Of a stretch of DNA of 22,241 nt, positions 12,652-12,723 are shown in pieces; the first letter of the stretch is position 1, and each line of letters starts with the position of its first letter. The notes under the pieces were generated by a model. That model was not told the DNA's origin. It did no database searches and saw only the letters and a program-made list of their open reading frames with translations. The stretch covers positions 1 through 22,241 of the IMG/VR virus record IMGVR_UViG_3300009001_000104; one strand, 5' to 3'. Both the position numbers and the translations under genes were made by a program. This DNA is from a virus.

Positions 12652-12723
12652 TTATTTATTGCATACATACATTGTAACTTCAAAGCCAAAACGCATTTCT
12701 GTAGCTGTTGGTTTAGTCCACAT
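12652..12723 (-). CDS. pqqA: PqqA-like PQQ precursor peptide (23 aa)
   Basis: A 23-codon frame from ATG 12723 to TAA 12652. The peptide begins MWTKP and has FGFEVTMY at residues 12-19; it carries Glu15 and Tyr19 in the spacing E-x-x-x-Y. In PqqA these two are cross-linked by the radical-SAM enzyme PqqE with PqqD, and are then excised and converted to pyrroloquinoline quinone by PqqF/G, PqqB and PqqC. The WxKP start, (L/F)RxGxEVTxY core and 23-residue length are those of bacterial PqqA. AAGGAA lies 8 bases before the start. The gene stands alone, against the strand of its neighbours, right after a terminator, in the manner of a moron. No pqqB-E gene is visible in this window, so host enzymes would be needed. 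Being a PqqA-like sequence is seen; PQQ production is inferred. Confidence 0.87.
   Translation of the reverse strand: [23 protein letters not shown]

What the first reader, a model, noticed from the sequence alone, without database searches (positions are those of the whole stretch)
12652..12723. Phage-encoded PqqA-like peptide: precursor of the PQQ cofactor
The peptide has the full length (23 aa), the WxKP start, the EVTMY core, and Glu15 and Tyr19 in the E-x3-Y spacing that PqqE cross-links. It lies inside a phage early block beside recombination genes, with its own ribosome site. No pqqB-E genes are visible, so host maturation enzymes would have to process it. In methylotrophs PQQ serves methanol dehydrogenase; a phage copy could raise PQQ supply and carbon or energy flow during infection. 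The alternative is a decoy that occupies PqqD/PqqE. I cannot say if such genes are already reported.
Basis: partly seen in the sequence, partly recalled or inferred. Interest (0 to 1): 0.92.

Follow-up and report, generated by a model that had tools for sequence, protein, structure and literature searches.

The report
Phage-carried PqqA peptide of methylophages
A virus of methanol-eating water bacteria carries a tiny gene for the peptide from which bacteria make the cofactor PQQ, and the same gene, usually left unannotated, turned up in every Methylophilaceae phage isolate we found and in at least 120 other viral contigs, which suggests that these viruses routinely top up the limiting raw material of their host's methanol-burning enzyme.

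Summary
Confirmed. Window 12652-12723, on the MINUS strand, encodes [23 protein letters not shown], a full PqqA (Pfam PF08042 40.7 bits, cut-off 21.1; NCBIfam equivalog TIGR02107 44.1 bits, cut-off 20), with a ribosome site and a perfect TATAAT, antisense inside a podovirus replication block. It is not an oddity. Among 50,697 phage records the peptide occurs in all nine Methylophilaceae phage isolates found (several unrelated lineages) plus a Manatee Spring phage; none is annotated as pqqA. All 120 Methylophilaceae genomes sampled carry pqqA (1-12 copies); 57 of 60 carry PqqE and PqqC; pqqA phages carry no PqqE over cut-off and no methanol dehydrogenase. Best reading: the phage supplies only the consumed, rate-limiting substrate; host enzymes finish PQQ. 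Prior art: one Lake Baikal T4-like population (2020). By-product, probably the more novel item: 13 phage pqqA leaders and 20 of 150 host genomes share a covarying, unnamed leader RNA directly upstream of pqqA (the window's copy lacks it). Function during infection is inferred, not shown.

The parts
12652..12723 (-). pqqA: 23-aa PQQ precursor peptide [23 protein letters not shown], stop included
   Evidence: 97
12731..12735 (-). ribosome binding site AAGGA of pqqA
   Evidence: read from the sequence; identical in relatives L251-L254
12757..12762 (-). promoter -10 TATAAT of pqqA (-35 weak)
   Evidence: sequence; kept in L251-L254; TATAAT is enriched upstream of viral pqqA, 33 of 119 against 8.7 in shuffles
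12605..12625 (+). terminator hairpin of the convergent SSB gene, between SSB and pqqA
12370..12618 (+). single-strand DNA binding protein gene, convergent neighbour
   Evidence: PHROG match
11768..12367 (+). RecE/YqaJ-like exonuclease gene of the replication block
   Evidence: PHROG match
12793..13008 (+). divergent neighbour, 71-aa ORF without family match
825..2114 (-). large terminase, 64% identical to OM43 phage Venkman (links the carrier to methylophages)

Best explanation
A phage of OM43/Methylophilaceae methylotrophs carries its own small transcription unit for PqqA, the peptide that is consumed one for one in making PQQ. During infection it is transcribed from its own host-type promoter, translated, and taken by host PqqD/PqqE (Glu15-Tyr19 cross-link) and then PqqB/PqqC to PQQ, keeping the PQQ-dependent methanol dehydrogenases supplied and energy flowing while host gene expression falls. 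Shown here: identity, conservation, host restriction, presence of host enzymes and of multi-copy host pqqA. Inferred: expression, maturation, and benefit to the phage.
For: Equivalog-level match. Present in all nine Methylophilaceae phage isolates found, of several unrelated lineages, and in at least 120 viral contigs. Purifying selection, with R11 and F14 invariant although the search pattern did not demand them. No Glu15 or Tyr19 losses found in IMG/VR. Host PqqE and PqqC in 57 of 60 genomes, pqqA in 120 of 120 with 1-12 copies. PqqA availability is cited as rate-determining in Methylovorus (PMC11317620) and pqqA but not pqqBCDE is multi-copy in the host family (PMC4109929). Pelagibacter phages of the same terminase family lack it.
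Against: No expression or PQQ data from infected cells. If host protein synthesis stops, little new methanol dehydrogenase needs PQQ, so the benefit is not self-evident. One cited study found pqqA dispensable for PQQ in Methylobacterium extorquens AM1, though orphan copies were not examined (PMC11317620). The window is a fragment and its host is inferred from relatives.
Confidence: 0.72

Rival explanations
1. Decoy: the phage peptide occupies host PqqD/PqqE and lowers PQQ, throttling methanol oxidation or disfavouring a competitor.
For: It keeps the residues that the host enzymes meet, and no maturation enzymes travel with it.
Against: It looks like a full substrate: Glu15, Tyr19 and the rest are conserved, and the commonest viral peptide is identical to the commonest host peptide, [23 protein letters not shown]. 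A decoy would be expected to lose at least one cross-linked residue.
Confidence: 0.1
2. PqqA or the PQQ made from it serves another purpose, such as lanthanide handling for XoxF or protection from oxidative stress, rather than more methanol oxidation.
For: Orphan pqqA copies respond to lanthanide form in M. extorquens and a role in lanthanide uptake has been suggested (PMC11317620).
Against: Nothing in the window bears on it; no lanthanide genes seen.
Confidence: 0.1
3. The gene marks a recombination or attachment site shared with host pqqA copies and is kept for that, not for its peptide.
For: Host copies are many and dispersed, and otherwise dissimilar phages share almost only this ~85 bp at DNA level.
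Against: Third codon positions vary freely while the peptide is kept, and each copy has its own ribosome site; an attachment site would keep the DNA.
Confidence: 0.04
4. A neutral hitch-hiker picked up from host DNA.
For: The unit is very small and mobile.
Against: Present in all isolates found from this host family, across unrelated phages, under purifying selection.
Confidence: 0.04

Closest known systems
PqqA of Methylophilaceae hosts (PF08042 / TIGR02107)
   Same: Same length, residues, promoter-proximal layout and stand-alone genes; the commonest viral and host peptides are identical
   Different: Carried by phages, one copy per record, often antisense to the flanking phage genes
Lake Baikal virus population VP_266 with PqqA (PMC7678222)
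   Same: Virus-encoded PqqA of a predicted Methylophilaceae phage, proposed to aid methanol oxidation
   Different: T4-like and accompanied by viral methanol dehydrogenase; here a podovirus with PqqA alone, and the trait is general among methylophages
Cyanophage photosystem genes such as psbA (from general knowledge)
   Same: Phage supplies a fast-consumed component of the host's energy machinery
   Different: Those encode enzyme or reaction-centre proteins; this encodes a 23-aa substrate peptide
Glutamine riboswitch of OM43 phage Melnitz (PMC9004378)
   Same: Cis-regulatory RNA in a phage of the same hosts
   Different: The leader RNA reported here is a different, unnamed motif upstream of pqqA and is shared with the hosts

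Membership tests
PqqA (TIGR02107 / PF08042) | Score over the curated cut-off across the whole model | tested here: met
   44.1 vs 20 bits, model 1-21 of 21; 40.7 vs 21.1 bits, model 1-19 of 19
PqqA (TIGR02107 / PF08042) | Glu and Tyr in E-x3-Y spacing | tested here: met
   E15 and Y19; no losses found in IMG/VR among the codon changes scanned
PqqA (TIGR02107 / PF08042) | Cross-linked by PqqE with PqqD and matured to PQQ | not testable with these tools
   needs biochemistry; candidate hosts encode PqqE and PqqC
Phage auxiliary metabolic gene | Host-derived metabolic gene in a bona fide phage genome | tested here: met
   terminase, portal, replication and lysis genes in the window; identical or near-identical peptides in hosts; present in cultured phage genomes
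Phage auxiliary metabolic gene | Kept by selection | tested here: met
   third-position diversity 0.39 against 0.13 and 0.07 at positions 1 and 2; part of the conservation is imposed by the pattern, R11 and F14 are not
Phage auxiliary metabolic gene | Changes host metabolism during infection | not testable with these tools
   needs infection experiments

The most novel reading that the evidence does not exclude
pqqA is a near-universal, overlooked gene of Methylophilaceae phages, and part of this phage pool shares with streamlined hosts a new cis-regulatory RNA (possibly a sensor of PQQ or a related signal) that controls pqqA, so that phages captured the host's regulated precursor gene as a unit. 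The window's own copy has only the promoter type of leader, not this RNA.
Probability: 0.4. Interest if true: 0.88.

Novelty: new variant of a known kind. Interest (0 to 1): 0.74.

Why it matters
If true, control of methanol oxidation is a standard target of the viruses of OM43 and its freshwater kin, by a very cheap route: a 24-codon gene for a consumed substrate instead of an enzyme. The annotations of the phages examined miss it, so existing methylophage genomes can be re-read at once, pqqA can serve as a marker for phages of this host family, and cultured pairs (Venkman with H5P1, MEP301, MEP401) make the supply hypothesis directly testable. The shared leader RNA, if it senses a ligand, would be a first handle on how PQQ supply is regulated in streamlined methylotrophs.

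Tried and rejected
Two Glu/Tyr-loss scans and a first search pattern were one codon short and are void; redone. RNA model R2 and its pair count had the structure one column off; replaced. The two 'Acinetobacter phage MD-2021a' hits look like bacterial contigs with ppk and pqqBCDE. The search for related loci refuses so short a peptide. A hairpin masking the ribosome site in the window's own leader was considered; the transcript folds no better than shuffles (z 0.06). Named phages MEP431-434, HIM624-A, phiMB624-A and Venkman EXVC038S could not be located in the collection, so 'all isolates' means all that were found. No alternative genetic-code or chance-ORF reading is needed.

Full report
Observation. 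The reverse strand of window 12652-12723 encodes [23 protein letters not shown]. It passes the curated cut-offs of Pfam PqqA (40.7 vs 21.1 bits) and of the NCBIfam equivalog (44.1 vs 20 bits). Glu15 and Tyr19 are in the E-x3-Y spacing. AAGGA stands 7 nt before the ATG and a perfect TATAAT 33 nt before it. The gene is opposite to the early operon in which it sits, convergent with SSB, whose terminator lies between the two. The finding's coordinates are right; the strand was not stated.

The carrier. The record is a 22,241-base virus fragment with terminase, SU10-type portal, Erf, primase/helicase, exonuclease, SSB, M15 peptidase and holin genes; G+C 35%. Its terminase is 64% identical to OM43 phage Venkman and to the Manatee Spring podovirus ctXG6705, and 44-49% to Pelagibacter phages. 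Those Pelagibacter phages, although of the same terminase family, are not among the pqqA hits.

Annotated phages. tblastn over 50,697 phage records gives 12 hits: nine Methylophilaceae phage isolates (Venkman, MEP301, MEP401, MEP402, P19250A, four Melnitz), ctXG6705, and two bacterial-looking contigs labelled Acinetobacter phage. None is annotated as pqqA: no gene is called in Venkman, MEP301, P19250A, MEP401 and MEP402, and in Melnitz and ctXG6705 the feature called there is an opposite-strand hypothetical ORF. Keyword searches in the papers on these phages find no pqqA (the P19250A paper was not read). A query with a divergent viral PqqA found the same 12. P19250A and MEP301 share almost only the ~85 bp pqqA unit with each other, with MEP401/402 and with ctXG6705 at DNA level (MEP301 also shares tail genes with MEP401).

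IMG/VR. The pattern fixed W, K4, P, G13, E, V, T and Y; R11 and F14, which it did not fix, are also invariant in 113 distinct sequences, and silent differences outnumber replacements about 2:1. Scans demanding a non-G first base at codon 15, or a non-T first base at codon 19, found nothing (they miss Asp/Ala/Gly/Val and Phe/Ser/Cys/Trp/Leu-TTR changes). Of 112 viral copies with both neighbours visible, 39 face against both, and most copies have 60-200 nt of free upstream DNA; TATAAT is enriched there about fourfold over letter shuffles, as for an independently transcribed 'moron'. In the window's terminase family 9 of 14 records of about 16 kb or more that went into the tree carry pqqA; the five that lack it are one well supported branch. 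Relatives by exonuclease that include the site (L251-L254) all carry it with the same TATAAT and ribosome site. Among viral contigs with unusual PqqA, terminase, portal, tail sheath or tail fibre genes were recognised in L016, L067, L091 and L108.

Hosts. All 120 Methylophilaceae genomes sampled carry pqqA, 1-12 copies; PqqE and PqqC pass cut-offs in 57 of 60. PMC4109929 states that Methylophilaceae have several pqqA (3-12 in its genomes) but one copy of the other pqq genes; PMC11317620 cites PqqA availability as rate-determining in Methylovorus MP688; PMC9851590 reports five pqqA copies, three of them on their own, in a PQQ-producing methylotroph. pqqA phages carry no methanol dehydrogenase (0 of 54 records) and no PqqE over cut-off (0 of 28).

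Mechanism. PQQ enzymes are reusable, PqqA is consumed one per PQQ (established biochemistry). A phage that needs PQQ supply to continue when host transcripts fall needs only this 72-base gene. That is the reading I favour (0.72). A decoy would not need to keep both cross-linked residues. Expression, maturation and benefit are not shown.

Known or new. A phage PqqA was reported in Lake Baikal population VP_266, whose representative also encodes methanol dehydrogenase (PMC7678222); a 2026 sediment survey lists virus-encoded pqqA without detail (PMC13188868). The stand-alone form, its presence in every Methylophilaceae phage isolate found, and its absence from annotation were not found in the papers searched (open-access papers only).

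By-product: a leader RNA. In 12 viral loci a hairpin UCA-AG-NNNGA ... UCNNN-UGA lies 66-76 nt before pqqA. Selecting only on constant bases, without requiring the variable NNN to pair, gives 12 matches in 2.08 Mb, all upstream of pqqA and all pairing (the bases were first noticed in these same sequences). On 11 phage sequences 96.6% of cells pair, with 19 double changes against 5.8 in shuffles and at most 46% pairing in slid controls; with three host sequences and two further phage rows, 25 against 7.4. The model adds phage L021 and finds the element once in each of 20 of 150 Methylophilaceae genomes, all of 0.9-1.4 Mb, each time directly before a pqqA copy (MWTQP.. or MWTTP..); in many a second pqqA follows about 200 nt on. 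In hosts a variable upper stem covaries (one with a UUCG loop) and a further hairpin abuts the ribosome site (by eye). No Rfam family matches. It is a candidate regulatory RNA of pqqA shared by hosts and phages; the ligand, if any, is unknown, and the window's copy lacks it.

Noticed in passing
Phage loci L018, L020, L021, L035, L037, L038, L047, L048, L069, L081, L096, L100, L118; host loci L136, L137, L176, L264-L283: Covarying, unnamed leader RNA directly upstream of pqqA, shared by unrelated phages and small-genome Methylophilaceae; candidate riboswitch or other cis-regulatory element.
   Followed up: partly
L136 7092-7361, L137 2472-2743, L176: Marine host MAGs carry tandem pqqA copies, the first with WTQP in place of WTKP, separated by a short ORF with a Cys-rich end (..HNWQCNCPLCSTKS).
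   Followed up: no
window 12748-12767 (-): Dyad CAAGG-N10-CCTTG spans the TATAAT of pqqA; possible operator, reported by the terminator scan.
   Followed up: no
L002, L008, L011, L015, L016, L043, L091, L108: Viral contigs with divergent PqqA peptides (for example MKWEKPNFKDIRLGFEVTCYIAIN), perhaps phages of other PQQ-making hosts; L016, L091 and L108 have clear structural phage genes.
   Followed up: partly
CAKLQF020000010.1 and CAKLQH020000055.1 (L128): Records named 'Acinetobacter phage MD-2021a' carry pqqA; the first has polyphosphate kinase and pqqBCDE beside it and looks like bacterial DNA.
   Followed up: no
genome G001 (record of L167, LSUCC0135): Twelve dispersed pqqA copies with identical model scores in a 2.1 Mb Methylophilales genome.
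   Followed up: no
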